The notes below the pieces were generated by a model. The model did no database searches and had not been told where the DNA came from. It saw only the letters and a list, made by a program, of their open reading frames with translations. Made by a program: the position numbers and the translations under genes. From a virus, in the IMG/VR virus record IMGVR_UViG_3300008459_000033, positions 1 through 64,000 of that record: a DNA stretch of 64,000 nucleotides; one strand, written 5' to 3'. Numbering within the stretch: the stretch's first letter is position 1; each line of letters starts with the position of its first letter. Positions 6,677 through 38,059 of this stretch are shown piece after piece.

Positions 6677-7408
6677 TCACAGGGGTGGATTATTTTTATG
6701 TCCCCACCAGTGGAGTTTAGTTTTTTCTTTTATAACATCCCAATCGATGTACAACGGTTTTTCTTCTCCAGTGTCTACAGTCATTACTTGTTTATGATGA
6801 ACTATTCTACGCATTTGTTCTTTTAGAAATTCATTTTTATCTGTTTGACTAAACTTCCAATTATTAGGTCCAAAGATAGGACAACAATACACATTATCAG
6901 AATCTGGATCTTTTAAAAATTTCATTATATTAATTGCATCATCGGGATATGGAAGATTTAAAGAATCTAATGTGTTGATAATAAATTCAATGGATTTAAT
7001 ATAATATAGCATATACTCAGTATCGACACTTTCAAATGCCCAGAATGGAATAGCGGGCTTGTTACTAGGATATGAAAAACGCAAATACATATAATCCTTT
7101 CCGGCAACCTGTATAATGTTGTGTTCCATTAATTGATAAAATTTATAAGGAGATGAAATAGAAATTTCATACAACTCATTATAAATTATTGGATCATTAT
7201 CTGTAAAATGATCAGACAGTGATACTACAGATCCGTCATTTCCATAAAATTTTGCATATTTGTTGCTATAGATATAGATTCCATCATCTGCATATTCTTG
7301 GATAAAACTACTCTTATCTTCAAATACCGGAATCTCTGCTCCGTGCGTGTACTCAGTTAGCTTATCCTTAGACCAGCTTTCTATTTTTTGTTTTAACTGT
7401 TCTTTCAT
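6677..7408 (-). CDS. Unknown protein in operon with sulfotransferase
   Basis: A 243-residue Tyr- and Trp-rich soluble protein with no recognised domain. It overlaps the sulfotransferase by 4 nt and is expressed after it from the divergent promoter at about 8020. 'PFWAFESVDTEYMLYYIKSI' and the C-terminal 'LHWWGHKNNPPL' are its most distinctive stretches. It may be a substrate-presenting partner of the sulfotransferase, but this is a guess from position. Confidence 0.55.
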   Translation of the reverse strand: MKEQLKQKIESWSKDKLTEYTHGAEIPVFEDKSSFIQEYADDGIYIYSNKYAKFYGNDGSVVSLSDHFTDNDPIIYNELYEISISSPYKFYQLMEHNIIQVAGKDYMYLRFSYPSNKPAIPFWAFESVDTEYMLYYIKSIEFIINTLDSLNLPYPDDAINIMKFLKDPDSDNVYCCPIFGPNNWKFSQTDKNEFLKEQMRRIVHHKQVMTVDTGEEKPLYIDWDVIKEKTKLHWWGHKNNPPL

Positions 7409-8016
7409 GTTGGATATGTGTACTTTAAAAAATCTAAATCTCTTTCAAACATTCTTGCTATTGTTTTTTTACTTTTTGTACTAAAATATTTCCAGTGCTC
7501 GTTATGATCAAACTCAGTTAAATCTGGTAACTCAACATTGCAATTCAAATATTCTTGAACTATTTTAAAATCAGTTTCTAATTGTTCGGCTTTTAAAATA
7601 AAATCAACACATTCATTATTATAATTTAAAAAATCTATCTGGCAATGAAATCGATTAAACCACCTAGGAAAGTCAAATACTATTTCTGGATTAGCATAGT
7701 CTTCTATCCAATCATCAAAGGGTTTTAAATCCATTAGTGATTGATCATTCCAATCTAACCAATACCCTTCAGAAGAAATTTTTCTATAAAAACTCCATAC
7801 CCTTGCCCATGGATTGCGAACAACACTAACAGTCTTTCCAGTTGGGATATGATCCCTAACCATTTTTAAATTAGGATGATCGATCATCCAACTGTCGGTG
7901 TCATTTACTATGAAGTTGGGTTTAAGCCAAGATGAAATAATTTTTTTCATTCCCATGCCAGTGCGGGGAATATGAATGTAGCTTAGTTGCGGATCTTGAA
8001 TGTGGAACGTTCCCAT
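7405..8016 (-). CDS. PAPS-dependent sulfotransferase
   Basis: A 203-residue protein. 'IHIPRTGMGM' (residues 14-23) is the 5'-phosphosulfate-binding loop and 'VVRNPWARVWSFY' (65-77) the 3'-phosphate-binding motif of the sulfotransferase superfamily. It would transfer sulfate from PAPS to a hydroxyl or amine, usually on a carbohydrate. The ATG at 8016 is preferred over an upstream TTG because TATAAATA lies four bases before it, matching the arrangement at the divergent gene. Confidence 0.85.
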   Translation of the reverse strand: MGTFHIQDPQLSYIHIPRTGMGMKKIISSWLKPNFIVNDTDSWMIDHPNLKMVRDHIPTGKTVSVVRNPWARVWSFYRKISSEGYWLDWNDQSLMDLKPFDDWIEDYANPEIVFDFPRWFNRFHCQIDFLNYNNECVDFILKAEQLETDFKIVQEYLNCNVELPDLTEFDHNEHWKYFSTKSKKTIARMFERDLDFLKYTYPT

Positions 8017-8020
8017 GAAA

Positions 8021-8028
8021 TATTTATA
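8021..8028 (-). promoter_or_regulatory. T4-late-type box TATAAATA, minus strand, abutting ATG
   Basis: On the minus strand TATAAATA is followed by TTTC and then the ATG of the sulfotransferase. If transcription starts where T4 late promoters do, the mRNA has almost no leader. Confidence 0.65.
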
Positions 8029-8043
8029 CGTCAATTTAACTAG

Positions 8044-8050
8044 GTAAATA
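8044..8050 (+). promoter_or_regulatory. Late-type box GTAAATA abutting ATG
   Basis: GTAAATA at 8044-8050, four bases before the ATG at 8055. It mirrors the minus-strand box in the same inverted repeat. Confidence 0.55.
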
Positions 8051-8054
8051 TTTC

Positions 8055-8891
8055 ATGAACATTTTTGATCTTAGAAAGTTACAGTTATCTGGTCCCACAG
8101 ATGTTATGTCTGCATTGCGTAGTATTGTTATAAATCCTATCGAAACTTGTAATCGAGTCTGCGTATTTTGTCCTAGAAGTACTGTATCAGTTGACACTTC
8201 TAAACAATATAAAATTAATTTAGATTTAATAACAAAAATAGCCAATGACTTAAGAAATATAAATTATAACGGCCGCATTGGTCTAAACGGATTTGGCGAA
8301 CCATTATTACACGACGACATAGACCAATGTGTAAGAATCTTAAAAGATAATATTCCCAAATTAACGTGGTTAGAAATACAGACCAACGGCGATAACTTAA
8401 CTAGAAATAAAGTGCAACAACTTGCTGATGCTGGGTGTAATACTCTTTCCATAAGCATGTATGACGACGATCAATCTGAGAAATTTAAATCTATGTGTTG
8501 GGATATTAATATCGAATTGGTTCTAAGACATCACTATGATAAAAGTAAAAATTATAATCTCAATCTTATCAATAGACTAGATTTAGTTAAATTAGAATCA
8601 CAAGAACTTAATATTGAAAAACAATGTTATTTGCCATTTTATAAATTTTTTATTGACTGGGATGGTAAAGTTTTGTTGTGTAATAATGATGTTGGTAAGT
8701 TTACTAACATGGGAAATGTTTATAATGAAACTATACAAGACATTTGGTTAGGTGAAAAATTCAATGTTTACAGAAAACATCTACTAGCTGGAGATAGAAA
8801 AAGTTGCAGCCCATGCAATAGATGTAATATTCAAGGTACATTACTAGGGAAAGAGAGTTTCGATATATTTGAAAAAACTCTAACATGCTAA
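8055..8891 (+). CDS. Radical SAM/SPASM-type protein 1
   Basis: A 278-residue protein. C32-x3-C36-x2-C39 is the [4Fe-4S] SAM-cleaving motif, and 'GFGEPL' at 79-84 is the SAM-contacting GGEP variant. The C-terminal cysteines C191, C209, C251, C254 and C257, with 'IDWDGKVLLC' and 'GNVYNETIQDIW', match a SPASM auxiliary-cluster domain. SPASM enzymes usually modify peptides or activate protein radicals. First gene of a four-gene coupled unit. Confidence 0.88.
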   Translation: MNIFDLRKLQLSGPTDVMSALRSIVINPIETCNRVCVFCPRSTVSVDTSKQYKINLDLITKIANDLRNINYNGRIGLNGFGEPLLHDDIDQCVRILKDNIPKLTWLEIQTNGDNLTRNKVQQLADAGCNTLSISMYDDDQSEKFKSMCWDINIELVLRHHYDKSKNYNLNLINRLDLVKLESQELNIEKQCYLPFYKFFIDWDGKVLLCNNDVGKFTNMGNVYNETIQDIWLGEKFNVYRKHLLAGDRKSCSPCNRCNIQGTLLGKESFDIFEKTLTC

Positions 8892-9430
8892 ACTCTAGAA
8901 TAATAATAGACCCGTGGCAACACTGGTTAGTTGATGACTTTTTATCTTCAAACTGTTTGGCAGAAGTCAAACAGATAGGCAGTGCCCACGAACAGCAAGT
9001 TTACGGAAAACGATCGGGCAGTGTGCGAATGTTTATAACCGACAAACATCAAGATACCTATCCTAATCTTTATAACCTATATCAAAGCTTACATCAGGGA
9101 GAGTATCGAGATTTTTTTGAGAAACAGACTAATCAGTCATTTGAGGGATTGTTTCCTAGAGTGGAGGTTATCAGTGACTACGGTCAATTCTATCTGCATC
9201 CACACACTGATCGAACCGAAAAAAAATTAACAGCAATTGTATACACCGACTACAAAAAATTGTATCCGGGAACTGCACTCAGCGATGATTATAGAATACC
9301 AGCAGCTGACAATAGATGTTTTTTCTTTGTGCCAAGTCAAGATACTGTTCACAGTTATCCATTAACTAATTTTACTGAAATTAGAAGATGCTTACAAATT
9401 AATTATTGGACATATTATGAAGAACATTAA
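8885..9430 (+). CDS. Fe(II)/2-oxoglutarate oxygenase-like protein 1
   Basis: A 181-residue protein. The facial triad is H107-T-D109 and H156, with R167/R168 placed to bind the 2OG carboxylate: prolyl-4-hydroxylase-like topology. It overlaps the upstream radical SAM gene by 7 nt and the next gene by 14 nt. It is predicted to hydroxylate a side chain or small molecule; the substrate is unknown. Confidence 0.78.
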   Translation: MLNSRIIIDPWQHWLVDDFLSSNCLAEVKQIGSAHEQQVYGKRSGSVRMFITDKHQDTYPNLYNLYQSLHQGEYRDFFEKQTNQSFEGLFPRVEVISDYGQFYLHPHTDRTEKKLTAIVYTDYKKLYPGTALSDDYRIPAADNRCFFFVPSQDTVHSYPLTNFTEIRRCLQINYWTYYEEH

Positions 9431-10250
9431 AAATTTTATAATTAATCAATTTATTCCATTACATTCAAATCACATGACCGATAGTAGTGACTTAAATTCT
9501 AATTGGGATTTTTGCAAAGACTTCTATGGAAAATTTTCTTTACAATTAATTAATTTTAAAAAAAATGATCACCGAGTGCATTTACCATCCAAAACTGCAT
9601 TTAGAAAAATATTTTTAAATTATCTCAACGATCCCGACAATTCTTCGCACTTTTTTAAAACACAATGGGTACTAAGTGAGTACTTGACTGTGGGATGGAA
9701 ATATCCAGTACAGGCAGTATGGAATTCTCGTATGCGTTGGTGGGAAATACATCCCGGATATTTAAGAGGATTAATTTATAATTTACTCGAAGTGGAAGAA
9801 TGGACCGCATGGTATCAACCAACTAGCAATAGAGTAGTTTCGTCTTTCAACGAATTTACATCCCCGGATGAAATTACTAGTTATTTTTTAGACAGCCATC
9901 ATGTCTCAACACATGTGGTAAATTATTTTAATAAACCGTTAATGGCGATTTGCATTCATGTATCTGATAACGGTGATAGTACTCAAATACATAAAAATAT
10001 ATTTCAACAGAATGTTCAACGTGGGATAAACATCAAGGGCACTGATGACATAATTCAGCAAGTTAAAAATGAAGTTGCTAATTGGCCAAATAGTTATATC
10101 AAGAATCAAGTAGTATACAATCAAGATTCTTTTCCATCACTAACAATAGAAAAATTTGATAAAAATAATTTTTATGCTGGCCTTTATTTGTTTGGTAGTA
10201 AAGTTATAAATTTTCAACAGCTAAATTTAAATTATAGGAATGTTAAATGA
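9417..10250 (+). CDS. Unknown protein ('WEIHPGYLRGL' motif)
   Basis: A 277-residue protein rich in Asn, Tyr and Trp. 'WNSRMRWWEIHPGYLRGL' in the middle is the only motif-like stretch; its His-Pro-Gly and Arg could form a binding site. No cysteine cluster or H-x-D triad. Coupled by overlaps to the oxygenase before it and the SGNH hydrolase after it. Function unknown. Confidence 0.55.
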   Translation: MKNIKNFIINQFIPLHSNHMTDSSDLNSNWDFCKDFYGKFSLQLINFKKNDHRVHLPSKTAFRKIFLNYLNDPDNSSHFFKTQWVLSEYLTVGWKYPVQAVWNSRMRWWEIHPGYLRGLIYNLLEVEEWTAWYQPTSNRVVSSFNEFTSPDEITSYFLDSHHVSTHVVNYFNKPLMAICIHVSDNGDSTQIHKNIFQQNVQRGINIKGTDDIIQQVKNEVANWPNSYIKNQVVYNQDSFPSLTIEKFDKNNFYAGLYLFGSKVINFQQLNLNYRNVK

Positions 10251-10888
10251 AAATAGGATTCTTTGGAGATAGTTTTTGTGCATACCTATACGGTATTGAT
10301 GGCAAACCAATGCCATACAAGACTTACATAGAAAAATTAAAAGATCATTATGACGCAGAAATAACACATCTAGGTCAACCTGGGTCTAGCATATGGGATA
10401 CAATACTTTTACAATTTCCAGATTTTATCGAATCTCCTCCTGACATCTGTATTTTTGCATGGACAAACCCGGATAGATTTTTTGATAGGGTAGTACGGAA
10501 GATTAAACCTACATACATCGGTGGCAAATATTCTGATCCAAATGTTTGGAACGCTGTTGATATGTATTACAAATATTTGTATGACGAAGAAAAAGTAGTT
10601 GCCGAAGCAGCAGCAGCCGTGAGATACTTTGACGAAGCAGTTTTATCAAAGATAAATTCTAAGATATTTCATGCATGGTGTTTTCCGGTTGACTGGAAAT
10701 TTAAGAATGCTGATTACACCTACAAATTTAAACACGGGTTTGAACTAGATTACCCGTTGGGATATTTTTCTCATGTATCGGGTAGCAAAGGAACTAATTC
10801 TCCAAACCACATAGGCGGAGATGAATATAATCAAAAACTGTTTGAGATTATTCGGGATGCTGTTGATGCTCAGCGTTTAATTAGCTGA
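10247..10888 (+). CDS. SGNH/GDSL hydrolase-like protein
   Basis: A 213-residue protein. Block I is 'GDSF' (Ser9), block II Gly46 in 'GQPGSS', and block III is probably 'AWTNPDR' (Asn74). The C-terminal block reads 'SPNHIGG', keeping His but lacking the usual Asp at -3, so catalysis may be impaired or use another acid. Such proteins are esterases or acyltransferases, often on glycans. It ends convergently with the desaturase, overlapping by 19 nt. Confidence 0.7.
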   Translation: MKIGFFGDSFCAYLYGIDGKPMPYKTYIEKLKDHYDAEITHLGQPGSSIWDTILLQFPDFIESPPDICIFAWTNPDRFFDRVVRKIKPTYIGGKYSDPNVWNAVDMYYKYLYDEEKVVAEAAAAVRYFDEAVLSKINSKIFHAWCFPVDWKFKNADYTYKFKHGFELDYPLGYFSHVSGSKGTNSPNHIGGDEYNQKLFEIIRDAVDAQRLIS

Positions 10889-11637
10889 ATAAGACGACCC
10901 ATTAAATCCCACTCCCACCATTTTTCTCCACTATGACTGTTACCACTTTTAGCATGATGGTTATTGTGCCACCCATCGCCTAAACTCACAATATTAGCAA
11001 TCCAGCTATTGGTACTTTGATCTCTAGTATCATATGTTCGATATCCGTGACGATGACCAAATACATTGACGACTCCAATTAAATGAACTGTCATACTAGC
11101 TGGAACTACATAGACAAACAACCATAATACTGGATCATACAAAATTATTATTAAAGAAAATGCAAATATTATTTTAAAGTAATTTTGAAAAATAAATTTG
11201 TGTGTTTTATCTTTTATAAGATCCTTGACGTAACCTATGGGAATATTAGGAATTTGCCAATCATACCCTAACCACACCTTAACCGCTTGTACAAAATTAA
11301 ACTTTCCGTTGATATACGGGCTATGCGGATCACCTTCTCTATCGGAGGTTGCGTGATGTTGTCGATGTAATGCAACCCAACTGATTGTAGGACCTACTGT
11401 TGAGATTACACTAATATAACTCAACACTTTTTCTAGCCATTCATAGGTTTTAAAACTTCGATGTGTTAACAACCTATGCAAGGTAATAACACTGCTGATA
11501 GGACCAATTATTAACCAAGATATAAATGCAATCGCAAATAGATAATGTTGTTGTGTATAGATAGCATAGACAATAGCAGGAATGGTTGCTAAGTGATTGA
11601 ACGTTTGTAATAATCTAACTTTGTTATTTAAATTCAT
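10870..11637 (-). CDS. Membrane fatty acid desaturase (delta-9 type)
   Basis: A 255-residue membrane protein. The three histidine boxes are present: HRLLTH (54-59), HRQHH (91-95) and HNNHH (224-228), flanked by hydrophobic segments near 16-55, 70-90, 155-180 and 183-193. This is the di-iron acyl-CoA/acyl-lipid desaturase fold. It would introduce a double bond into host membrane acyl chains, or act as a hydroxylase of the same family. Coupled by 4 nt to the gene upstream on the same strand. Confidence 0.9.
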   Translation of the reverse strand: MNLNNKVRLLQTFNHLATIPAIVYAIYTQQHYLFAIAFISWLIIGPISSVITLHRLLTHRSFKTYEWLEKVLSYISVISTVGPTISWVALHRQHHATSDREGDPHSPYINGKFNFVQAVKVWLGYDWQIPNIPIGYVKDLIKDKTHKFIFQNYFKIIFAFSLIIILYDPVLWLFVYVVPASMTVHLIGVVNVFGHRHGYRTYDTRDQSTNSWIANIVSLGDGWHNNHHAKSGNSHSGEKWWEWDLMGRLIQLIKR

Positions 11638-12245
11638 ATACCTTCAGGCATTGCTGCCCAGCCCTCGTCATTAATTATTGCAGGATTCCATTCTGCAAAC
11701 TTCCCCGGAACTGCTTCGTAGTAAACATAATTTTGCCAACACTTCTGTACCTGTGCGTTGCAGGTTTGAATGTATCCGGAACCCAACGACCATTTACTAT
11801 TACTAGCAATGCTCATATGTTTAACCCAAGCATCCCACCAACGTTTGCCGCCACGCGGCCTATTTTGCATAGTAATCAAATATACATCATACGAATTTAC
11901 TTTTTCTAATGCATCGATTAAACTACAGGTAACCCTAAACCCATCAGTCATATCGGTATGCTTCATACGAAATTCGGGAAACGTGTAGAGTCGATTAATC
12001 TGCTTGGCTATATTTTTTGGATATCGCCCGTCATTAAACACTCCCCCCATTACCATAGGCTTACCAGTTGACTTTTGATAGACCACTCCGTAGCCTGTGT
12101 GTTGCTCTACCAATAAGTTTTCTTTGGTATAGTTACTACGTAACCAATTATTTTCTTCCAGGCAGATGTTTCGTACGGATTCAAACTCCGGACTTGATTC
12201 GTAGTATATTTTAATTTCGGTATTGGATAGATCGTATCTGTACAT
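11634..12245 (-). CDS. Unknown protein, possibly acyltransferase (GNAT)-like
   Basis: A 203-residue soluble protein. 'GYGVVYQKSTGKPMVMGGVF' followed by 'LYTFPEFR' resembles central strands of a GNAT fold, but the usual Q/RxxGxG/A acetyl-CoA loop is not evident. The later 'LITMQNRPRGGKRWWDAW' is distinctive. First gene of the two-gene minus-strand unit with the desaturase. The GNAT idea is weak; treat as unknown. Confidence 0.5.
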   Translation of the reverse strand: MYRYDLSNTEIKIYYESSPEFESVRNICLEENNWLRSNYTKENLLVEQHTGYGVVYQKSTGKPMVMGGVFNDGRYPKNIAKQINRLYTFPEFRMKHTDMTDGFRVTCSLIDALEKVNSYDVYLITMQNRPRGGKRWWDAWVKHMSIASNSKWSLGSGYIQTCNAQVQKCWQNYVYYEAVPGKFAEWNPAIINDEGWAAMPEGI

Positions 12246-12276
12246 TTTTTATAGTAGCAGTTTATTTACTTAAATA
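12246..12276. promoter_or_regulatory. Divergent late-type promoter region
   Basis: Plus strand: TTAAATA at 12270-12276, directly before ATGATG at 12278. Minus strand: CTATAAAAA at 12254-12246, against the ATG at 12245, and a further GTAAATA slightly upstream. This 32-nt gap therefore serves both directions. Confidence 0.5.
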
Positions 12277-12277
12277 T

Positions 12278-12901
12278 ATGATGATAGAAAATATTCTAAC
12301 CAAATTAAATTTTAATGTTGACATCAAAGAACTGCATGAATATTATAATACACTCAACACTAGATTTCAACATTTAGATTGGAGTTGGAGTAAGTGTGGA
12401 GATACTGTTGTTAAACAATGGCGAGATGCTGCTCATGCAGATCCTGCCAATCTGCTCACCCATGGTTGGGCCATACAAAGCAATTTAAAAGATATAACAT
12501 TACCTTGTCCGCCTTGGAATATCAGTACATTAGAAACTGTGGAATATAGAAACACCGAATTAGTGTTTGGTATCGTCGAAAGATTACAGGCAGCAATACC
12601 ATATGCGTATCGTTGGGCAGTGAGTGTTCAGCCGCCGGGTGGCAAAGTAAGTCTGCATTCAGATCAAGAAGATGAGTGTACAGTATGGATTCCAATTTTT
12701 ACTAACGGAGTTGCTATTACCTTTGTTACAGATAACAAGGACACTGCTTATTGTTTAGACTGTGACGGTAGTGTCTACTTACTAGATACTACGATTCCGC
12801 ATTTTACATACAATGCTTCTGAACAAGATCGTGTTGCTATTATTTTTAGAATAAAACAAACAAGCTTGCCTGAATTATTAAAGGCAACGGGCACATTATG
12901 A
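12278..12901 (+). CDS. Fe(II)/2OG oxygenase-like protein 2 (Asp/Asn hydroxylase type)
   Basis: A 207-residue protein. H127-S-D129, H175 and an Arg at 185 or 191 form the expected cupin triad, with 'VQPPGGKVSLHSD' before and 'LDTTIPHFTYNAS' around the distal His, as in aspartyl/asparaginyl hydroxylases. First gene of a four-gene unit that begins at a late-type box. Confidence 0.78.
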   Translation: MMIENILTKLNFNVDIKELHEYYNTLNTRFQHLDWSWSKCGDTVVKQWRDAAHADPANLLTHGWAIQSNLKDITLPCPPWNISTLETVEYRNTELVFGIVERLQAAIPYAYRWAVSVQPPGGKVSLHSDQEDECTVWIPIFTNGVAITFVTDNKDTAYCLDCDGSVYLLDTTIPHFTYNASEQDRVAIIFRIKQTSLPELLKATGTL

Positions 12902-13545
12902 AATTAGCATACGTACCAATCGACATTCCAGTTAAGATACCCGACGAAACAAAAGTCTTAGAATGGTTTGAAGCTCATAAATTAACAGATACTGACTATT
13001 GGGAATATAAACAAGGGCGGCATGCGTGGGCTATGATATCAACTTGCAAACAACCAAAAGACTGGCGCAGGTATGATCCAGCTATGTGGGAGAATCGTAG
13101 AGTGGAAGGCGAGAACGAAGGAGTACTATTTCATCCCGGCTTTGAAGAAGCATTTCCAGAAATTGCTAACTGCATAAAACAACTGCCATTTAAACAATTA
13201 ACTGTCAGTGGTATGTTGTATCAACTAAACGAAATACCTGCTCACCAAGATACACTCGATCCTAATAATCCTACCGAACCTAGGCGCTACACTATATACT
13301 TAACTGCTCCAGAACATAATACATTTTATGTTTCTAAAACACCTGACAGTGAAAAAATCATAGTTAAGGTAAATCCAGAGTATTCGTGTTTTGTTTTCAA
13401 CAATTTTGATTGTTGGCACGGGGCACTAAAAAATGATCGTCCTAAAATTATTTTAACTGCTGCAGGAATTTTAGATAACGAAAAGCACAATGCATTATTA
13501 GCAAGAAGTTTAGAAAAATTTAAAGACCAAGCGATATACCTATGA
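12898..13545 (+). CDS. Fe(II)/2OG oxygenase-like protein 3
   Basis: A 215-residue protein with H116-Q-D118, H174 and R181. It is a clear paralogue of the protein at 35205: both share 'YTPIDIP'-like starts, 'PRRYxIxLTxPEHNTF' and 'FNNxDxxHG'. ATGA overlaps on both sides. The conserved 'PEHNTF' segment looks specific to this subfamily. Substrate unknown. Confidence 0.78.
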   Translation: MKLAYVPIDIPVKIPDETKVLEWFEAHKLTDTDYWEYKQGRHAWAMISTCKQPKDWRRYDPAMWENRRVEGENEGVLFHPGFEEAFPEIANCIKQLPFKQLTVSGMLYQLNEIPAHQDTLDPNNPTEPRRYTIYLTAPEHNTFYVSKTPDSEKIIVKVNPEYSCFVFNNFDCWHGALKNDRPKIILTAAGILDNEKHNALLARSLEKFKDQAIYL

Positions 13546-16202: not shown

Positions 16203-16207
16203 AACTC

Positions 16208-29745: not shown

Positions 29746-30367
29746 AATTAAACATGCTCAAAGTAAGAGAAAATCTTCTTTCAGCTGGATTTAAATTTTC
29801 AACACTGTGTATCTCATCAACTTTCAATTGATGCCATTTATTTTTAGGAAATACAATTGAATCCGTTTCTTGAATTCGTTCATACGGGATAAAAGTTCTT
29901 GGTGCAATTGTATAACTCTTAAATTCATCTTTTGGTTTATAGAATACCGTTCTAACTTCCTCGCCACCGGTATCTATTAGATAATTGTATGCCACATTCC
30001 TCATAAGATCGATGTGCGGAATAAAAAAATCACCCTCGACAAATTCCTGTAAACTAGCATGCCAACCAGTGACTGGAATGTTTTTTTCTAACCAAGTGTT
30101 TACAAATGCAGGCGACGGTATTATTCTAAACAAACATACGTTTGGAAACTGATTAGCAGCAACACTCGTAGGATATCCTAAAGAATTTTCAACATTGCCA
30201 GTAAGTGGATGTGTTTTTTCTATCTCTGCCCTGGCCTGAGGCATTACCATAAAGTGTTTAAAATTTTCTATTGGCACTAATAGTGGTCTACATTTTTCAA
30301 AATGTGCAGTCATGTCGTCGATCAATGACTGGGGAATCTGGGGGAAGGCTGGGTATGAGTAATACAT
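29738..30367 (-). CDS. Fe(II)/2OG oxygenase-like protein 10
   Basis: A 209-residue protein. 'FFIPHIDLMRN' gives H118-I-D120, and 'DEIHSVENLNPAERRFSLTL' H187 and R197/R198. It is a single-gene minus-strand unit starting at its own late-type box (CATAAATA), with an 8-nt tail overlap with the SDR. Confidence 0.73.
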   Translation of the reverse strand: MYYSYPAFPQIPQSLIDDMTAHFEKCRPLLVPIENFKHFMVMPQARAEIEKTHPLTGNVENSLGYPTSVAANQFPNVCLFRIIPSPAFVNTWLEKNIPVTGWHASLQEFVEGDFFIPHIDLMRNVAYNYLIDTGGEEVRTVFYKPKDEFKSYTIAPRTFIPYERIQETDSIVFPKNKWHQLKVDEIHSVENLNPAERRFSLTLSMFNFK

Positions 30368-30373
30368 GAGTAA

Positions 30374-30403
30374 TATTTATGACTTTTTTGTACCCGCTAA
30401 ATA
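30374..30403. promoter_or_regulatory. Divergent late-type promoter region
   Basis: Minus strand: CATAAATA at 30381-30374, six bases before the ATG at 30367. Plus strand: CTAAATA at 30397-30403, one base before an ATG that opens a four-codon frame (Met-Thr-Thr-stop, 30405-30416). The true downstream start is at 30434, so this unit may carry a minimal leader. Confidence 0.5.
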
Positions 30404-30433
30404 TATGACTACTTAATTAACTATACTTATATT

Positions 30434-31924
30434 ATGCCACATGCATTAATTTTCGGAGGAGCAGTCCGTATTAACGGAGTCGGAAACACTCAATTAATAC
30501 GATTGGGCGGTTCTCACAAAATCGCTACCTGGCTACGGTCACAGGACTGGGATGTTGAGGTAGTGGATTATTTTTTCGGATGGACTTTAGAAGAATTACA
30601 AGAATTTTGTAAATTAAAAATTAATGAAGGCACTATTTTTATTGGATACAGTGCTACATTTGCAGCAGATGACATTCGCTTAACTAATTTTATTTCTTGG
30701 TTTAGGTCTGCATATCCAGCAATAAAAATTATTGCAGGCGGTCAAGATGTTATTCTTACAAAAATCGATGCTGACTATTATTTAGATGGTTATAGTGAGT
30801 ACGCCATTGATGCTGTGATTAATCATATAAGAAAAAAAGAAAAATTAAATTACACACTTTGGAATAATGGAAAATTAATTAAAGCTAATATAAGTTATCC
30901 TGCGTATCCAATGGCAACTTTACCGATACGATATGAAGATCGAGATTATATCAGTCCATATGAAACACTACCAGTCGAACTAAGTCGAGGTTGTAAATTT
31001 AAATGTGCTTTCTGCAATTATCCTATTTTAGGAGTAAAAGGTGACTATTCAAGAGATGCATTAGATTTTAAAGAAGAATTAACATTTCTTTATGAAAAAT
31101 TTGGAGTTACTAAATTTAATATTGCCGACGAAACCATTAATGATCGAACAGAAAAATTAGAAAAATTTGCAAATGTAGTTCAACAATTAGATTATACTCC
31201 GTGGCTCAACGGATTTATTAGATTTGATTTGTTAGTATCTAGAAGACAAGATTGGGATTTAGTTGCAGGAATGAATTTATTTGGCCATCATTATGGGATA
31301 GAAACATTAAACTGGGAATCGGGCAAGGCGGTTGGCAAAGGGATGAATCCCGATAAGATCAAAGAAGGACTACTTGCCGTAAGAAAACACTTTAAAGAAC
31401 AGGGTAACTATAGAGGACTTATTACGCTAATTGCCGGATTGCCTCATGAAACTAAAGATACCCTATCGCAGACACTGGATTGGATGGCCACGAATTGGGC
31501 GGGGGAAGGAATACGAGCATTTCCATTAGGTATACCAAAGATGGACGGAATTGTTACAACCTCTACAATTTCTAACACATATAAAGAATTAGGATACAGT
31601 GAAATGAGTTCGGAAGAATTAGAAGTTGCTGGAATTACGCAATCGAAGTTAGGGCAATTAAATTTTGCTATAAAGGATAATATATTGTTTTGGAAAAACG
31701 AACACATGAATTTTTTTGAAGCTGAACAAATAACAAACAAGTGGCATAAAACAAACTCCGACAAGTTTCTTATCGGTGGATGGAATGTTGGAGAATTAGC
31801 GCAGATAAAAAAAGAGCCACTTGAAGAACTTTTAAAATTTGGCGGCGACGATGTTATGTCTGATGAAGAGCGTAATCCAATAATTAGAAAATATATCGAT
31901 TCTAAATTAGGATATTCGAAATGA
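30434..31924 (+). CDS. B12-binding-type radical SAM protein (duplicate A)
   Basis: A 496-residue protein. Residues 1-130 resemble a cobalamin-binding-like Rossmann domain ('FIGYSATFAADDI', 'IIAGGQDVILTKIDADYYLDGYSE') but lack the DxHxxG base-on motif. C187-x3-C191-x2-C194 ('SRGCKFKCAFC') follows. Class B radical SAM enzymes with this layout methylate unreactive carbons or rearrange substrates. Paralogous to the next gene, to which it is coupled by ATGA. Confidence 0.85.
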   Translation: MPHALIFGGAVRINGVGNTQLIRLGGSHKIATWLRSQDWDVEVVDYFFGWTLEELQEFCKLKINEGTIFIGYSATFAADDIRLTNFISWFRSAYPAIKIIAGGQDVILTKIDADYYLDGYSEYAIDAVINHIRKKEKLNYTLWNNGKLIKANISYPAYPMATLPIRYEDRDYISPYETLPVELSRGCKFKCAFCNYPILGVKGDYSRDALDFKEELTFLYEKFGVTKFNIADETINDRTEKLEKFANVVQQLDYTPWLNGFIRFDLLVSRRQDWDLVAGMNLFGHHYGIETLNWESGKAVGKGMNPDKIKEGLLAVRKHFKEQGNYRGLITLIAGLPHETKDTLSQTLDWMATNWAGEGIRAFPLGIPKMDGIVTTSTISNTYKELGYSEMSSEELEVAGITQSKLGQLNFAIKDNILFWKNEHMNFFEAEQITNKWHKTNSDKFLIGGWNVGELAQIKKEPLEELLKFGGDDVMSDEERNPIIRKYIDSKLGYSK

Positions 31925-33405
31925 AACATGCGTTAATTTTTAACATACACACAATCAATATTAGACGCCCCGGTGGCGCATATCGTATTGCTTCTTTTTT
32001 AAGAGAACACGGTTGGGATATCGAAGTAATAGAATGGACCATGCACTGGACCCAGGAAGAACTACAAGAATTATGCAGATCTAGGATTACAGATAACACG
32101 GTGTTTGTAGGATATAGTTGTTTCTTTAGTGAATGGAATACTCATGTCGAGGACCTAGCACAGTTTATAAGAAAAGACTATCCGGAAGTCAAACAAATAA
32201 CCGGAAGTCAAAGCAAACCTAGAATGGAATCAACTGCTGTGGATTATTATCTCACTGGCTTTGGTGAGTATGCTATATTAGAATTGTTAAAATATATTAC
32301 TGGCAACGGCCCTGCTCCTAGTTTTGATCCTAAATATTTTGGATCTAAAAAAGTAATTACAGCTAATCATTTTTATCCAGCATTTCCTATGAAGAGTTTA
32401 ATGGTAAAGTATGAAGACCGAGATTTTTTAGAACCAACAGATTGGTTAACTATGGAATTTAGTCGAGGTTGTAAATTTAAATGTTTGTATTGCAATTTCC
32501 CGGTGCTAGGTGTTAAGGGCGATTACACCAGAGATGCAGATGATTATTATGTTCAAATGATGGATGCATATGATCGCTTTGGCATTACTAACTACTATGC
32601 CAGTGATGAAACATTCAATGACCGATCAGAAAAAATAACAAAGTTTGCAGATGTTACTAGAAAGATGCCATTCAAACCCTGGTTCAGTGGATTTATACGA
32701 GGCGATTTGTTAGTATCAAGAAAACAGGATTGGGAGCCATTAGCAGAACTAGGATTCCTAGGGCAGTTCTATGGTATAGAAAGTATGAATCATGAGACTG
32801 CAAAAGCCATCGGAAAGGGAATGCATCCAGATAAACTGTTGCCGGGTTTGTTAGAAGCAAGAAATTATTTTAAAACACACCATAGAAAATTATATAGAGG
32901 TGTGATTGCACTGATGGTTGGGCTACCTTATGAATCTAAAGACTCCGTTAATAAGTCTCTGGACTGGTTAGTTAATAATTGGCAAGGTGAAGCCTTCGAA
33001 CTATGGCCTTTAGAAATTCCCATAGACTATAAAACCGATGTGCTGTCGACGCTGTCAGTTAATTGGGAAAAATACGGGTATCGAGAAATAAAGTTTGACA
33101 ATTTGCCTAAATTAAAAAATAGATTTGCTGAAGTAAAACACGGAATTTCTAATCTACATTGGGAAAATGATTATATGAACTTTGACGAGGCTCGACATAT
33201 TTCTGACAATTTTAGATCCAAGGCTAACAAAGAATATAAATTTACAATTAATTCATATGGATTAGATAATTTTATTCAATTAGGTATGACTATAGATGAA
33301 GCATTGGAGTATAGAGAAGAACCATCAACTCCCCATTATGCTAATTTACAAAAAATAATGGATGAACGAATTAATGATTACAAACATAAGAAGTTAAGTA
33401 TATGA
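31921..33405 (+). CDS. B12-binding-type radical SAM protein (duplicate B)
   Basis: A 494-residue protein with C184-x3-C188-x2-C191 ('SRGCKFKCLYC'). Shared blocks with the upstream gene include 'RSEKITKFADV'/'RTEKLEKFANV', 'FIRGDLLVSRKQDW'/'FIRFDLLVSRRQDW' and 'AIGKGMHPDKL'/'AVGKGMNPDKI'. Divergence is greatest in the N-terminal domain, so the two may have different substrates or form a heterodimer. Confidence 0.85.
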   Translation: MKHALIFNIHTINIRRPGGAYRIASFLREHGWDIEVIEWTMHWTQEELQELCRSRITDNTVFVGYSCFFSEWNTHVEDLAQFIRKDYPEVKQITGSQSKPRMESTAVDYYLTGFGEYAILELLKYITGNGPAPSFDPKYFGSKKVITANHFYPAFPMKSLMVKYEDRDFLEPTDWLTMEFSRGCKFKCLYCNFPVLGVKGDYTRDADDYYVQMMDAYDRFGITNYYASDETFNDRSEKITKFADVTRKMPFKPWFSGFIRGDLLVSRKQDWEPLAELGFLGQFYGIESMNHETAKAIGKGMHPDKLLPGLLEARNYFKTHHRKLYRGVIALMVGLPYESKDSVNKSLDWLVNNWQGEAFELWPLEIPIDYKTDVLSTLSVNWEKYGYREIKFDNLPKLKNRFAEVKHGISNLHWENDYMNFDEARHISDNFRSKANKEYKFTINSYGLDNFIQLGMTIDEALEYREEPSTPHYANLQKIMDERINDYKHKKLSI

Positions 33406-34028
33406 AATATGCAGTGCTTACTGATTTTCAAATGCTAACTCCGGAAATTAGTAACGGAATAATTGAGCTAGCATCCGACGTTGAACATTTAAAAAAGAAT
33501 GTGTTCATATCCAACGGATACGCTATTAGACAATCCGCAAGCAAAGAAGAAAAATTATTGGGCGAGTATAGAACATATCAAGATGAGAGACTAAATGGCG
33601 GAGATGGATATTTTGCTGTGGCAAATCTTACAAAAGATCTAGAACAATTAATCATAAAACAGATTCCTAAATGCTTGCAACACCTCGGGATACCTAGAAT
33701 TAGATTTCAAGTTTTAAAAGATTTTATATTATTTCCGCATATCGACCAAGGAAGAAAAACTTCGCTATTTACTATGGTAACTGATAATCGAGGAATTGAC
33801 TGTGTATTTTGGGAAAAAACAAAAGAGCATGAGCTCTTTGAAAATCATCTACCGGATCCCAGTCTTATAAAACAAAAATTAAATTTTAGTGTTAATCAAG
33901 GAGAGACATGTTTGTTCGATCACGATTGCATTCATGGTACATTAACAAAATCTAGTCAACCTCGCATAACTCTCAACTTGAGTTATCAACTTACTATCCC
34001 CGAAATGCTTAAAGAGATTTACAAATGA
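33402..34028 (+). CDS. Fe(II)/2OG oxygenase-like protein 11
   Basis: A 208-residue protein. 'FILFPHIDQGRK' gives H113-I-D115, and 'DHDCIHGTLTKSSQPRITL' H178 and R188. ATGA overlaps on both sides place it between the duplicated B12-type radical SAM genes and the Tes-like radical SAM. Confidence 0.76.
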   Translation: MKYAVLTDFQMLTPEISNGIIELASDVEHLKKNVFISNGYAIRQSASKEEKLLGEYRTYQDERLNGGDGYFAVANLTKDLEQLIIKQIPKCLQHLGIPRIRFQVLKDFILFPHIDQGRKTSLFTMVTDNRGIDCVFWEKTKEHELFENHLPDPSLIKQKLNFSVNQGETCLFDHDCIHGTLTKSSQPRITLNLSYQLTIPEMLKEIYK

Positions 34029-35230
34029 ACATTACTATCAAGAATATCAATCAATTTAAAGATCAGCATATAGAACAATTGTTAGATTCAATTAGAATGA
34101 TTGGAGGAACGCTGTTGTCGCCAACGGTGAGCCTGTGTCATTGTTGCTATCGACACATACCGGGATGGAGATATCATCAAGATAATAAAGTATATCTAGC
34201 AAAAAATTGTTCGTTGCACGGAATTACGCATCATATGATAGAAAGTGATTACGAATTTTATTCAAATCTTTTCTATACTCAAGAAACTAAGAAGTATAAT
34301 TTTAATTCATCACTGCTAATGGAAGGCAGTGATCGTTGTAATCTAGAATGTCCGCATTGTTATCATTTGCCCGATAATCAAATAACAGATATTCCTAAAG
34401 ATCAGTTTTTAGCTAGGATCAAAGAACATCCAATTGGAGAAGATGAAATACAACGGATAGTTTTGTCTGGTGCGGAATCAACATTGCGACCAGATTTTTG
34501 CGAATTAGTAGCTGATATTAGATCAATGAATCTGTATCCTATAGTTATGACCAACGGTATACGATTTGGCGATGTGCAGTTTTCTAGAGAAGCAGCAGCG
34601 GCTGGCCTAATTGGAGCAAACATTGGATTAAACCATCCCGAATACAATAACTACGAAGTAGTTCGTAAAAAACAAATTAGAGCAATAGAAACAATGCATC
34701 AAGAAAATGTTGCTGTGGGATATATTTCTTATACTATGATCGATCTCAATGAATTAGATTATATTTTAAAAGAAATAACATCGAGTACATGGACTCCTAA
34801 TACATTTAGAGTAAGAGCTGGCAGCGAAATTGGTCGTAATTCAACGGAAGGTAGAGTATATTTGAGTGATATATTTAAGACTGCTAGAAAATGGGCTGAG
34901 GATAATAATAAATCATTTAAAGTAATAGGTGAAGCAGACGACAACATCTATCATATTATGGTAGATATAGAAGGAAAAGAAATAAGATTAATTCAGTGGT
35001 GTGATATTACAGATATCGACATGGAAGAATTAAGAGCAGGGCCGTGGTGCGATTTTGTTCCGGACGGTATAACAAATTTCCTACATCAAATTATTCGTCG
35101 AGATATTTTAAAGAATCAAAATAAAATATTACCCGATGTTCCGCCTTCGCGATATATGTATAACAGAAATATAACTAAAGAGCCATTGGATTTTTCAAAA
35201 TTATATGCCGACGTACACACAAGAAAATAA
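34025..35230 (+). CDS. Tes/MJ0619-like radical SAM protein
   Basis: A 401-residue protein. The N-terminal Cys/His block (C38, C40, C41, C62 in 'KNCSLHG', then 'ESDYEFYSNL') resembles the zinc-ribbon-like domain of MJ0619/Tes radical SAM proteins, which include the archaeal tetraether lipid synthase. C105-x3-C109-x2-C112 is the core; GGEP is replaced by 'SGAEST'. Lipid or lipoyl-type C-C chemistry is a candidate role. That fits the desaturase elsewhere in the island but is unproven. Confidence 0.72.
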   Translation: MNITIKNINQFKDQHIEQLLDSIRMIGGTLLSPTVSLCHCCYRHIPGWRYHQDNKVYLAKNCSLHGITHHMIESDYEFYSNLFYTQETKKYNFNSSLLMEGSDRCNLECPHCYHLPDNQITDIPKDQFLARIKEHPIGEDEIQRIVLSGAESTLRPDFCELVADIRSMNLYPIVMTNGIRFGDVQFSREAAAAGLIGANIGLNHPEYNNYEVVRKKQIRAIETMHQENVAVGYISYTMIDLNELDYILKEITSSTWTPNTFRVRAGSEIGRNSTEGRVYLSDIFKTARKWAEDNNKSFKVIGEADDNIYHIMVDIEGKEIRLIQWCDITDIDMEELRAGPWCDFVPDGITNFLHQIIRRDILKNQNKILPDVPPSRYMYNRNITKEPLDFSKLYADVHTRK

Positions 35231-35882
35231 AAAATTAATTTACACACCGATTGATATTCCTATAATCTTACCAGACGTGGAAGACATGAAGGATTTTCAT
35301 TTTACCCACGGCGTTATAAACAAAGACTACGAAGATATTATACAAAATAGACACGACTATACTGTAGCGTGTAGTCGATATTCAGTAGAAGATTGGAGAA
35401 TTTTACCTACTGCAAAGTATATGGACAAGGGAGATTGGAAGAAAACTGGTAATGAATATGAGTTAAACTGGAATCCAGAGTTTGTAAAAAGATTTCCAAC
35501 GCTAGTAGATGCTATTTTGGCAGCTCCATTTAAAGAAATCGCATTCGCAGGGTGGATGAGACAGATCAGTTCGTACCCTGCACACACTGATAGTCATGAT
35601 CCAATGCAACCAATAGAGCCTAGACGATACAATATTCTATTAACAGAACCGGAACATAACACTTTTTGGTTAGAAGATGATGCTGGCCAAACACTTATTC
35701 CTGTTAGTCATAGAGACTATCCAATGTTTGCATTTAATAACGCTGATGTAAAACACGGAACTAACCCAATTACTAAATTTAAACTAATGATGGGCATTGT
35801 TGGAATCATTGATCCTGACAAACATCTAGAATTAATCAATAGAAGCGTTAATAAATTTCCTAATAGTACTATTTGGATTTAG
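35205..35882 (+). CDS. Fe(II)/2OG oxygenase-like protein 12
   Basis: A 225-residue protein, paralogue of that at 12898. H127-T-D129 ('YPAHTDSHD') and H184 ('DVKHGTNP') are conserved; the 2OG anchor is Lys (191 or 193) instead of the Arg in the paralogue. It overlaps the upstream gene by 26 nt and its convergent neighbour by 14 nt. Confidence 0.76.
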   Translation: MPTYTQENKKLIYTPIDIPIILPDVEDMKDFHFTHGVINKDYEDIIQNRHDYTVACSRYSVEDWRILPTAKYMDKGDWKKTGNEYELNWNPEFVKRFPTLVDAILAAPFKEIAFAGWMRQISSYPAHTDSHDPMQPIEPRRYNILLTEPEHNTFWLEDDAGQTLIPVSHRDYPMFAFNNADVKHGTNPITKFKLMMGIVGIIDPDKHLELINRSVNKFPNSTIWI

Positions 35883-36846
35883 GAATCTTACTATCAGCTG
35901 AACTCACGCAGCTAGGCGTAATGCACTGCTGTGGTGTCTTAAACAAGTCAAAGCTTTCTAGAGTACCTAGTGCAGTATCGTGGCAACTGTAGCTACGTTT
36001 TACTTCATTACCCCTAATAATAACGCTTTGATAGCCTGCATTACAGATCCAATCTTTGAATTTGTTAAATCCAAAGGCATTAAATCGTTCTGCTTGATCA
36101 AACAAGTATTCGATACCTGCTGCATCGTACAAGGCGATCTGATATAACTCTTCTCCGTTGGCACGTTGAGGAAATCCAGTCTGCATTTTGTTGATCATAT
36201 CCTCGGTGTATCCGTCAACGATGCCGCTGGCAGTTGGATCGCTCATGGGTTTGAGTGTTACGTTGATTCCACGTTTGTGAAATCGCTCCATGCGAGCATA
36301 TAGTTCGTCAAACTTTTCGGGCACCATTACTTGATTGATGGTAACGTGTACTAGTTCGTACATCAACTGTAAACACTTATCGCCAAACTCTTGTTCTTTA
36401 GCGAACTCATCATGGAAGCTGGCTGTTATACTTCTACGCTGTAACAACTCTGTGTTCTTACACCAAGTGTTCCACCACTTGCTTCCTGGACTTAGGTTAG
36501 TGGTCATGTGTATACTTTGGTATGAACTTTCTAAATCATCTTGTAGATGCTTGACAAGTTCATTCAATTGCTTGTATGCTGTGGGCTCACCTCCGCTGAA
36601 CGACCAATGGAACTGGTTAAACCCATTGACTCGTGCTTGACGTTTAATCTCGTCTACAGTAGATTTATATACTTCAAGCGGTTGGTGATCCGGAGTACTA
36701 CTATTTGCGTAAGGCCAACAGTAGCTACACTTGTAATTACAAAACCTACCCAAGATCCAGCTAGTGGAGAACAACGTGTTAGCGAGCATTGTTCGTTGAC
36801 CGAACTTTACTATTTGCTCAAAAGGTATTGTTTGAAATTGTGTCAT
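35869..36846 (-). CDS. Radical SAM protein 11
   Basis: A 325-residue protein with C36-x3-C40-x2-C43 ('CNYKCSYC') and 'SGGEPTAYKQ' at 84-93. The C-terminal 'WICNAGYQSVIIRGNEV', 'SYSCHDTALGTL' and 'CITPSCVSS' match the auxiliary region of the proteins at 20051 and 21514. It closes the island and is a single-gene unit with a minus-strand CTAAATA-like box about 20 nt upstream. Confidence 0.87.
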   Translation of the reverse strand: MTQFQTIPFEQIVKFGQRTMLANTLFSTSWILGRFCNYKCSYCWPYANSSTPDHQPLEVYKSTVDEIKRQARVNGFNQFHWSFSGGEPTAYKQLNELVKHLQDDLESSYQSIHMTTNLSPGSKWWNTWCKNTELLQRRSITASFHDEFAKEQEFGDKCLQLMYELVHVTINQVMVPEKFDELYARMERFHKRGINVTLKPMSDPTASGIVDGYTEDMINKMQTGFPQRANGEELYQIALYDAAGIEYLFDQAERFNAFGFNKFKDWICNAGYQSVIIRGNEVKRSYSCHDTALGTLESFDLFKTPQQCITPSCVSSADSKIPKSK

Positions 36847-38057: not shown

Positions 38058-38059
38058 AG

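What the first reader, a model, noticed from the sequence alone, without database searches (positions are those of the whole stretch)
6677..36846. 30-kb phage island with 11 radical SAM and 12 Fe(II)/2OG-type enzymes
Eleven proteins carry C-x3-C-x2-C cores and twelve carry H-x-D...H...R/K triads. They are packed by ATGA-type overlaps with a halogenase, desaturase, sulfotransferase, SGNH hydrolases, SDR pair, QueC-like and kinase-like proteins. Each family occurs singly in aquatic phages; this density in one locus is, to my knowledge, exceptional. I infer a phage biosynthetic or macromolecule-decoration pathway combining C-H activation, hydroxylation, halogenation and sulfation. The substrate is unknown.
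Basis: partly seen in the sequence, partly recalled or inferred. Interest (0 to 1): 0.95.

Follow-up and report, generated by a model that had tools for sequence, protein, structure and literature searches.

The report
Phage island of radical and hydroxylating enzymes
A large, never-isolated T4-like phage carries a 30-kb block of 36 tightly packed genes, at least 23 of them radical-SAM or iron/2-oxoglutarate enzymes, behind late-phage-type start signals; reshuffled relatives of the block occur in many uncultured phages and its core also sits in chromosomes of predatory-type bacteria, so it is a real but undeciphered chemical tailoring pathway.

Summary
Pfam finds exactly 11 radical SAM (rSAM) proteins over cut-off, all inside 8,130-36,756. 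Twelve proteins carry an H-x-D...H...R/K triad; the triad is invariant in the families that can be aligned, and a no-Pfam-hit example (g12) folds as a 2OG oxygenase. The contig is viral (69-kb fragment; tail fibres, T4-type RNA ligase, 33 tRNAs). The island is not unique: 209 IMG/VR stretches encode g22 relatives, and 26 examined records carry 5-25 rSAMs. Isolated phages hold only remote homologues; nearest precedents are Campylobacter phages with 11-12 rSAMs and pelagimyophage host-recognition clusters. New here: (1) nearly all divergent operon heads carry a T4-late-like TAAATA (10/11, P about 1e-15; internal genes 1/24); (2) a core protein, g16, is a predicted GT-A glycosyltransferase-methyltransferase fusion; (3) the rSAM trio g22/g23/g36 is a conserved chromosomal cassette in Bdellovibrionota, beside GT-like and methyltransferase-like genes, sometimes within 14-17-rSAM islands lacking the phage start signal. 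Best reading: a late-expressed pathway tailoring a glycan or glycosylated protein, probably on the virion or envelope. Substrate unknown. A RiPP cluster is unlikely: about 230 non-coding bases, no precursor gene. New variant of a known kind.

The parts
6677..7408 (-). g1, unknown, 243 aa
   Evidence: ORF; only weak sub-cut-off Pfam hits, no PHROG hit
7405..8034 (-). g2, sulfotransferase-like by motif (HIPRTG, RNPWARVWS); likely ATG start near 8016, directly after TATAAATA
   Evidence: sequence; no Pfam or NCBIfam hit; TATAAATA at 8021 on the - strand, ATG 4 bases on
8055..8891 (+). g3, radical SAM/SPASM
   Evidence: PF04055 and PF13186 over cut-off
8885..9430 (+). g4, 2OG-Fe(II)-type by motif (HTD..H..R)
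   Evidence: PF13640 weak E 0.039; triad
9417..10250 (+). g5, unknown
   Evidence: no Pfam or PHROG hit
10247..10888 (+). g6, SGNH-hydrolase-like by motif (GDSF)
   Evidence: sequence only; no hit
10870..11637 (-). g7, membrane fatty-acid desaturase (DesA-like), three His boxes
   Evidence: PF00487 2e-20; NF049918 below its cut-off
11634..12245 (-). g8, unknown, conserved next to g7 in relatives
12278..12901 (+). g9, 2OG-Fe(II), AspH-like
   Evidence: PF05118 weak; triad
12898..13545 (+). g10, 2OG-Fe(II) by conserved triad
   Evidence: H116, D118, H174 invariant
13542..14231 (+). g11, protein-kinase-like fold, catalytic residues degenerate
   Evidence: profile A8 to solved TTK kinase, E 1e-4
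14224..15021 (+). g12, 2OG-Fe(II) oxygenase
   Evidence: H177, D179, H234, R247 invariant in 11 orthologues; fold Z 10.3-11.8 to 2OG oxygenases
14995..15540 (-). g13, 2OG-Fe(II)
   Evidence: H105, D107, H162 invariant in family A10
15537..16202 (-). g14, 2OG-Fe(II) beta-hydroxylase-like
   Evidence: profile to 7v4f E 5.5e-14; triad invariant
16242..16907 (+). g15, aspartyl/asparaginyl-hydroxylase-like 2OG enzyme
   Evidence: PF05118 5.1e-10 over cut-off
16888..18096 (+). g16, predicted GT-A glycosyltransferase domain (res 9-226) fused to class-I methyltransferase-like domain (about 213-383)
   Evidence: AlphaFold2 model pLDDT 75.7; VIA Z about 10.5 to LH3 GT and PBCV-1 capsid GT, Z 9.3-9.7 to EgtD and NodS
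18072..18812 (+). g17, PP-loop ATP-pyrophosphatase, QueC/TilS-like
   Evidence: PF06508 E 1e-3 sub-cut-off, TIGR02432 2e-4 sub-cut-off; SGGADS and C-x2-C-x2-C conserved
18706..20058 (+). g18, twitch-domain radical SAM (N_Twi_rSAM); first ATG inside at about 18745
   Evidence: NF033640 342 bits
20051..20944 (+). g19, radical SAM
   Evidence: PF04055 7.6e-16
20924..21526 (-). g20, SGNH-type esterase/acyltransferase-like
   Evidence: weak NF047474; SGNH motifs in sequence
21514..22449 (-). g21, radical SAM
   Evidence: PF04055
22446..23744 (-). g22, twitch-domain radical SAM, core gene
   Evidence: NF033640 422.6 bits; 209 viral relatives
23741..24832 (-). g23, radical SAM, core gene
   Evidence: PF04055
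24895..25968 (-). g24, radical SAM, paralogue of g23
   Evidence: PF04055
25951..26517 (+). g25, 2OG-Fe(II), AspH-like; likely ATG start about 25984 right after TTAAATAT
   Evidence: PF05118 1.9e-3; triad
26507..28123 (+). g26, flavin-dependent tryptophan-halogenase family; active-site Lys kept, W-x-W-x-I-P not exact
   Evidence: PF04820 1.7e-92; sequence
28120..28665 (+). g27, AspH/LpxO/OlsC-like 2OG hydroxylase
   Evidence: PF05118 2.7e-21; NF052565 OlsC 8.8e-16 sub-cut-off
28653..29162 (+). g28, Rossmann/SDR-like, paralogue of g29
   Evidence: clusters with g29
29116..29745 (+). g29, SDR-like
   Evidence: weak SDR hits
29738..30367 (-). g30, 2OG-Fe(II)-type by motif
   Evidence: triad only
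30434..31924 (+). g31, class-B-like radical SAM (PhpK / ladderane-type B12-rSAM relatives)
   Evidence: PF04055 over cut-off; TIGR04072 and TIGR04479 sub-cut-off
31921..33405 (+). g32, class-B-like radical SAM, paralogue of g31
   Evidence: PF04055, TIGR04479 sub-cut-off
33402..34028 (+). g33, 2OG-Fe(II)-type by motif
   Evidence: triad only
34025..35230 (+). g34, radical SAM with HMPTM zinc ribbon (Tes/MJ0619/TrsS-like)
   Evidence: PF23545 2.7e-11, PF04055 9.3e-10
35205..35882 (+). g35, 2OG-Fe(II), paralogue of g10
35869..36846 (-). g36, radical SAM, most conserved core gene
   Evidence: 50-85% identity across phages and Bdellovibrionota, many invariant columns
8008..36900 (.). T4-late-like TAAATA start signals at divergent operon heads (gaps near 8017-8054, 12246-12277, 16203-16241, 24833-24894, 25969-25983, 30368-30433; also upstream of g36)
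   Evidence: 10 of 11 heads versus 1 of 24 internal starts, P 7.7e-16

Best explanation
A late-expressed biosynthetic/tailoring island of a T4-superfamily phage that chemically remodels a macromolecule, most likely a glycan or glycosylated protein on the virion's host-recognition structures or the host envelope. Proposed order: 2OG enzymes hydroxylate C-H positions; the GT-A/methyltransferase fusion g16 adds and methylates a sugar-type unit; the rSAM trio g22/g23/g36 with g18/g19/g21 does dehydrogenation, epimerisation or C-C/C-methyl chemistry; g31/g32/g34, the halogenase-like enzyme, desaturase, sulfotransferase-like, SGNH and SDR proteins are variable end-tailoring cassettes. Shown: enzyme classes, conserved core, reshuffled periphery, late-type start signals, chromosomal counterpart in Bdellovibrionota. 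Inferred: that there is one pathway, the macromolecular substrate, and each reaction. 'Tailoring of a macromolecule' is about 0.5; a virion protein specifically about 0.3.
For: 11 rSAM and 12 2OG in one overlapping-gene block. Conserved core with swapped periphery in many phages. g16 = GT-A + MTase folds, nearest structures LH3 glycosyltransferase and the PBCV-1 capsid glycosyltransferase, Z about 10.5. GT-like (D-x-D) and MTase-like genes accompany the g22/g23/g36 trio in Bdellovibrionota and in phage G012. Sugar-nucleotide epimerase, DegT aminotransferase, AMP-ligase and class-III aminotransferase in sister islands. TAAATA at 10/11 operon heads, also before tail-fibre genes, and enriched in most other phage islands tested but not comparably in the Bdellovibrionota loci. 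In G019 the rSAM-rich region is followed by a tail-collar-domain gene. Precedent: rSAM cassettes in the pelagimyophage host-recognition cluster (PMC7029224).
Against: No substrate or product is known. Only g16 in this island is glycosyltransferase-like, and its model is moderate (pLDDT 76) with single-domain Z about 10. The 69-kb fragment lacks recognisable copies of the GT-like (X) and MTase-like (Y) partners. Desaturase, OlsC/LpxO-like g27 and Tes-like g34 could equally mean lipid chemistry. Late expression is inferred from a motif, not measured.
Confidence: 0.45

Rival explanations
1. A phage-borne secondary-metabolite cluster making a diffusible small molecule (antibiotic-, toxin- or signal-like), shared with predatory-lineage bacteria by gene exchange.
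For: Halogenase-family, desaturase, B12-type rSAM, aminotransferases, AMP-ligase and nitroreductase in this or sister islands. Chromosomal islands with about 14-17 rSAMs in Bdellovibrionota. g14/g13 resemble a nucleoside-antibiotic hydroxylase.
Against: No NRPS, PKS, carrier protein or exporter recognised in the Pfam scans; gene content is fluid, unlike a fixed product; phages are not generally known to make diffusible metabolites (own knowledge).
Confidence: 0.22
2. Host envelope (LPS or lipid) modification that blocks superinfection or keeps the infected cell alive.
For: g27's best NCBIfam relatives are lipid hydroxylases OlsC/LpxO (sub-cut-off), g7 is a DesA-type desaturase, g34 Tes-like and g31/g32 ladderane-type rSAM relatives. 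Pelagimyophage authors read similar clusters as O-chain modification (PMC7029224).
Against: Late-type start signals fit virion assembly better than early exclusion; no acyltransferase or lipid-linked sugar machinery recognised here.
Confidence: 0.2
3. A RiPP pathway: rSAM/SPASM and 2OG enzymes mature a ribosomal peptide, like proteusins.
For: SPASM/twitch rSAMs, 2OG hydroxylases and B12-type rSAMs are used together in known RiPP pathways (own knowledge); the N_Twi profile's best solved relative is SkfB, a sactipeptide maturase, 5.6e-8.
Against: About 231 non-coding bases in 30,170 and no small ORF left for a precursor; no RiPP maturase model passes its cut-off; no protease or exporter seen.
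Confidence: 0.07
4. Nucleic-acid (tRNA or DNA) modification: QueC-like g17, QueD at 62,075-62,641, 33 tRNAs and rSAMs form a deazaguanine or hypermodification pathway.
For: QueD-like gene, PP-loop g17, tRNA array.
Against: g17 is below the QueC cut-off, and up to three paralogues occur per island; QueE-type hits are generic and far below cut-off; the 2OG proteins that match a family are AspH-like; of the seven other records read, only G012 has tRNA genes.
Confidence: 0.06

Closest known systems
Interchangeable radical-SAM module of Campylobacter phages CP220/CPt10/CP21 (Firehammervirus)
   Same: Large T4-related phages with 11-12 rSAM proteins; a swapped five-rSAM module; unknown function (PMC2853527). 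CP21 has 11 rSAM matches and TAAATA at all four divergent heads in the stretch read.
   Different: rSAMs scattered over 183 kb, 5 in the module; no Asp_Arg_Hydrox match versus 5 in G000 with the same model; only remote homology (22% identity).
Host-recognition cluster (HRC) of pelagimyophages and cyanomyophages
   Same: Hypervariable island of a T4-like phage with gene cassettes including rSAM proteins, with tail fibres (PMC7029224).
   Different: HRC is described as glycosyltransferase-rich; here at least 23 of 36 genes are rSAM or 2OG. The VrlC/gp14 borders were not tested.
Chromosomal rSAM islands of Bdellovibrionota (e.g. G029 638-665 kb of a 936-kb contig)
   Same: Same core trio g22/g23/g36 (g22 45-51%, g36 46-52% identity), QueC-like, g32-like, many twitch rSAMs.
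   Different: Cellular surroundings (GatB, Rho, with an integrase nearby), little or no TAAATA signature, few 2OG genes seen.
Vibrio phages K566/VS1 rSAM cluster
   Same: Cluster of rSAM genes in about 250-kb phages.
   Different: 6 rSAM matches in K566, 22-25% identity, no Asp_Arg_Hydrox match.
NF033640 twitch-domain radical SAM family
   Same: g18 and g22 are members over cut-off.
   Different: The family name gives no reaction, so membership does not give a function.

Membership tests
Radical SAM superfamily (11 proteins) | PF04055 over cut-off and C-x3-C-x2-C | tested here: met
   11 of 11
Fe(II)/2OG oxygenase superfamily (12 proteins) | H-x-D...H facial triad plus distal R/K | tested here: met
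   12 of 12 by motif; conserved in families of g10/g35, g12, g13/g25, g14
Fe(II)/2OG oxygenase superfamily (g12) | double-stranded beta-helix fold | tested here: met
   by model
Fe(II)/2OG oxygenase superfamily (other 11 proteins) | double-stranded beta-helix fold | not tested
NF033640 N_Twi_rSAM (g18, g22) | score above 170 bits | tested here: met
   g18 342, g22 423 bits
Viperin | NF038283 above 180 bits | tested here: not met
   best 47 bits, g19
Tryptophan halogenase family (g26) | PF04820 over cut-off | tested here: met
   311 bits
Functional flavin-dependent halogenase (g26) | W-x-W-x-I-P signature | tested here: not met
   sequence reads GWMFKIG; active-site Lys region AIYKFANKF kept
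RiPP biosynthetic cluster | precursor peptide gene in the cluster | tested here: not met
   231 non-coding bases in the island, no spare small ORF
QueC (7-deazaguanine), g17 | PF06508 above 22 bits | tested here: not met
   19.1 bits
T4-superfamily phage | Gp23 major capsid protein | tested here: inconclusive
   absent from the 69-kb fragment, present in related records G012, G013, G019; T4-type RNA ligase/tail-fibre attachment gene in the window
CP220-like rSAM module | close homology of rSAM genes | tested here: not met
   22% identity for g36 to CP21; no CP-phage match listed for g18 or g22
Pelagimyophage HRC | island between VrlC and gp14 | not tested
   window is a fragment; borders not searched for
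GT-A glycosyltransferase (g16) | GT-A nucleotide-sugar fold | tested here: inconclusive
   model residues 9-226, Z about 10.5 to several GT-A chains, 4-12% identity, pLDDT 76

The most novel reading that the evidence does not exclude
A previously undescribed phage-encoded pathway, shared with predatory-lineage (Bdellovibrionota) bacteria, that builds an exotic radical- and oxygenase-tailored glycoconjugate on virions late in infection, with interchangeable tailoring cassettes acting as a combinatorial surface-chemistry generator that changes host recognition or evades host defence.
Probability: 0.25. Interest if true: 0.93.

Novelty: new variant of a known kind. Interest (0 to 1): 0.77.

Why it matters
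It is one of the richest concentrations of C-H-activating enzymes I could find in viruses, and it is recurrent rather than a one-off. The shared core with Bdellovibrionota chromosomes gives a tractable minimal cassette (three rSAMs plus GT-like and MTase-like genes) for finding the chemistry. The late-promoter signature makes the question of what phages do with radical SAM proteins, open since the 2010 Campylobacter phage genomes, directly testable.

Tried and rejected
Cellular contig or prophage artefact: rejected; viral record with tail fibres, head-protease-like, RNA ligase and tRNAs. Chance motif matches: rejected. RiPP cluster: no precursor space. Collagen-like substrate (suggested by LH3/ColGalT matches to g16): no Gly-X-Y runs of six or more in any gene called in the eight records. 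Viperin: below cut-off. g16 as a fusion of the bacterial X and Y genes: profile comparison found no relation, which does not exclude it. X and Y against solved structures: no useful match, so their GT-like and MTase-like labels rest on motifs. PHROGs knows none of ten island proteins. Isolate phages: no match for g12, g16, g27, g32, X or Y, only remote ones for g18, g22, g36. Host assignment: not settled; g36 occurs in 20 of 340 Bdellovibrionota genomes and 0 of 349 of the phylum of G043, a Lysobacterales MAG, but the first sample includes genomes already known to have it. Sigma-70 promoter and terminator scan: at chance level.
Full report
WHAT WAS CHECKED. The window is bases 1-64,000 of a 69,168-base IMG/VR record classed as linear, so probably a fragment. 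I called 36 genes, g1-g36, in 6,677-36,846. Pfam's radical SAM model rings 11 times in the record, always over the curated cut-off, always inside the island. The C-x3-C-x2-C motif occurs in all 11 and in none of 27 other window genes of at least 120 aa; shuffling the 11 proteins gives 0.08 hits per set. Twelve further proteins hold an H-x-D...H...R/K triad. Two pass the Asp_Arg_Hydrox cut-off, g9/g14/g25 match it weakly, g4 matches 2OG-FeII_Oxy_3 weakly, and g14 matches a solved beta-hydroxylase by profile (5.5e-14). For g12, which matches no Pfam family, the triad is invariant in 11 orthologues, and the predicted structure (pLDDT 78.8) resembles only 2OG oxygenases among the 50 listed chains (Z 10.3-11.8). 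g30 and g33 rest on the motif alone.

IS IT A PHAGE. The flanks hold a head-maturation-protease-like gene, thymidylate synthase, tail-fibre genes, the T4-type RNA ligase/tail-fibre attachment catalyst, a QueD-like gene and an endonuclease, and 33 tRNA genes. Three related records carry the T4 major capsid protein Gp23 (G012 and G013 about 1e-99, G019 truncated at its end). I read it as a T4-superfamily phage; the capsid gene itself is not in this fragment.

HOW COMMON. A scan with g22 gave 209 related stretches in IMG/VR, up to 82% identical. Their neighbourhoods keep a recognisable core, g36 - g23 - g22 - g21 against g19 - g18 - g17 - g16 - g15 - g14 - g13 - g12 - g11, while other genes come and go. 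Twenty-six records carry 5 to 25 rSAMs (G025, 76.8 kb: 25; G018: 22; G019, 170 kb: 21), and each of 21 of them searched also carries an AspH-type gene. In 50,697 phage records g12, g16, g27 and g32 have no match and g18, g22, g36 only remote ones.

WHAT ACCOMPANIES THE ENZYMES. g16, conserved in most islands and without family hits, is predicted as two domains: residues 9-226 like GT-A glycosyltransferases (LH3, PBCV-1 capsid glycosyltransferase, Z about 10.5) and about 213-383 like class-I methyltransferases (EgtD, NodS, Z 9.3-9.7). Model confidence is moderate and identity low, so this is a fold-level reading. g11 is kinase-like (1e-4). Sister islands add a sugar-nucleotide epimerase, a DegT-type aminotransferase, a class-III aminotransferase, an AMP-ligase and a nitroreductase.

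REGULATION. The island is 99.2% coding, with about 230 non-coding bases, and 29 of 35 junctions overlap. All but one of the gaps lie between divergent genes. There TAAATA, the core of the T4 late promoter TATAAATA (established knowledge), occurs at 10 of 11 operon heads against 1 of 24 internal starts (P 7.7e-16). The eleventh head, g25, has TTAAATAT directly before a likelier ATG start (sequence). Other phage islands show the same (11/16, 12/16, 6/6 heads in G019, G025, G008), and tail-fibre genes at 56,068 and 59,351 have it too. A minority of the shorter viral loci do not show it (L048, L069). The tested Bdellovibrionota loci, some equally AT-rich, show no comparable enrichment (the G029 island has 2 of 16, P 0.02). 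The P value is a simple binomial on motif density and the heads are not fully independent because divergent pairs share a gap, but the effect is very large and recurs. I infer late, phage-controlled expression; no RNA data exist.

A CHROMOSOMAL COUNTERPART. The one scan of bacterial genomes, with a g18/g22 profile, returned mainly Bdellovibrionota/Oligoflexia MAGs as closest (45-51% identity). There g22, g23 and g36 sit together, usually beside a D-x-D-containing protein X (glycosyltransferase-like by motif) and/or a methyltransferase-like protein Y. In L140 the neighbours are ordinary chromosomal genes. G029 holds a 27-kb island with about 14 rSAMs, X, Y, a QueC-like and a g32-like gene in a 936-kb contig, between GatB/Rho/TPR genes and an integrase. 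Phage G012 has X, g36, Y, g23 and g22 within about 6 kb. g36 is single-copy in all but one of the carriers searched and was found in 20 of 340 Bdellovibrionota genomes, 0 of 349 in the phylum of a Lysobacterales MAG. In trees the window's lineage falls with phages only, while G019-type phages nest among Bdellovibrionota sequences; the root is arbitrary, but the labels need more than one change, so at least one exchange between phage and bacterium beyond a single split is implied. A few hits labelled as other phyla (L143-L148) group with or next to phages and look like misbinned phage contigs. This suggests contact with Bdellovibrionota, perhaps as hosts, without proving it.

HOW IT MOST LIKELY WORKS. 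Shown: the enzyme classes, core/periphery structure, late-type signals, chromosomal counterpart. Inferred: a tailoring line in which a sugar-type unit is transferred and methylated (g16; X and Y in the minimal form), remodelled by radical chemistry (g22, g23, g36, g18, g19, g21) and hydroxylated by AspH-like enzymes, with exchangeable finishing cassettes. Late timing and tail-region neighbours in relatives favour a virion or envelope product over early host takeover. Rivals are a diffusible metabolite, envelope-lipid modification, a RiPP and nucleic-acid modification; the third is disfavoured by the lack of any precursor gene, the fourth by sub-cut-off QueC and QueE matches.

COMPARISON WITH WHAT IS KNOWN. 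Campylobacter phages CP220 and CPt10 were reported in 2010 with 11 and 12 rSAM proteins and an interchangeable five-rSAM module (PMC2853527); CP21 and Vibrio phage K566 have 11 and 6 rSAM matches and no Asp_Arg_Hydrox match. Pelagimyophages have rSAM cassettes in a hypervariable host-recognition cluster (PMC7029224). My literature searches found no description of a combined rSAM/2OG island, its late-type signals or its Bdellovibrionota counterpart, within an open-access library only. Hence: new variant of a known kind, high interest, mechanism open.

Noticed in passing
window 37736-46497: 33 tRNA genes (one with a four-base anticodon call, 38425-38493) in about 9 kb right after the island; G012 has 47, the other records read in full or part have none.
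   Followed up: partly
window 62075-62641: QueD-like 6-pyruvoyl-tetrahydropterin synthase near the tail fibres; possible deazaguanine pathway in this phage.
   Followed up: no
window 8008-36900: TAAATA lies so close to many start codons (e.g. TATAAATATTTCATG for g2) that late transcripts may be leaderless or nearly so.
   Followed up: partly
window 56068-59076: 1002-aa Thr/Ser/Asn-rich repeat protein (GTGTVTINP...GAFTTL repeats) between a conserved phage gene and tail fibres; a plausible adhesin and possible substrate.
   Followed up: no
L111:16276-19185 (G025) and G019 81679-83787: Protein with several degenerate repeats of about 110 aa followed by the glycosyltransferase-like X domain; bacterial versions have the X domain alone.
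   Followed up: partly
G029 C15 638-665 kb (L207, L208): Chromosomal island of about 14 rSAMs in a Bdellovibrionia MAG with a phage-type integrase gene at 668.7 kb; possibly a mobile element.
   Followed up: partly
L143, L144, L145, L146, L147, L148: Contigs binned as Neisseriaceae, Planctomycetota, Thermoplasmata, Gammaproteobacteria, Acidimicrobiaceae and Chloroflexi carry phage-like rSAM genes and group with or next to phages; probably misbinned phage DNA.
   Followed up: partly
L155 and G041 C275: Bdellovibrionales contig with about 17 rSAMs in 40 kb, three QueC-like genes and a g16-like gene.
   Followed up: no
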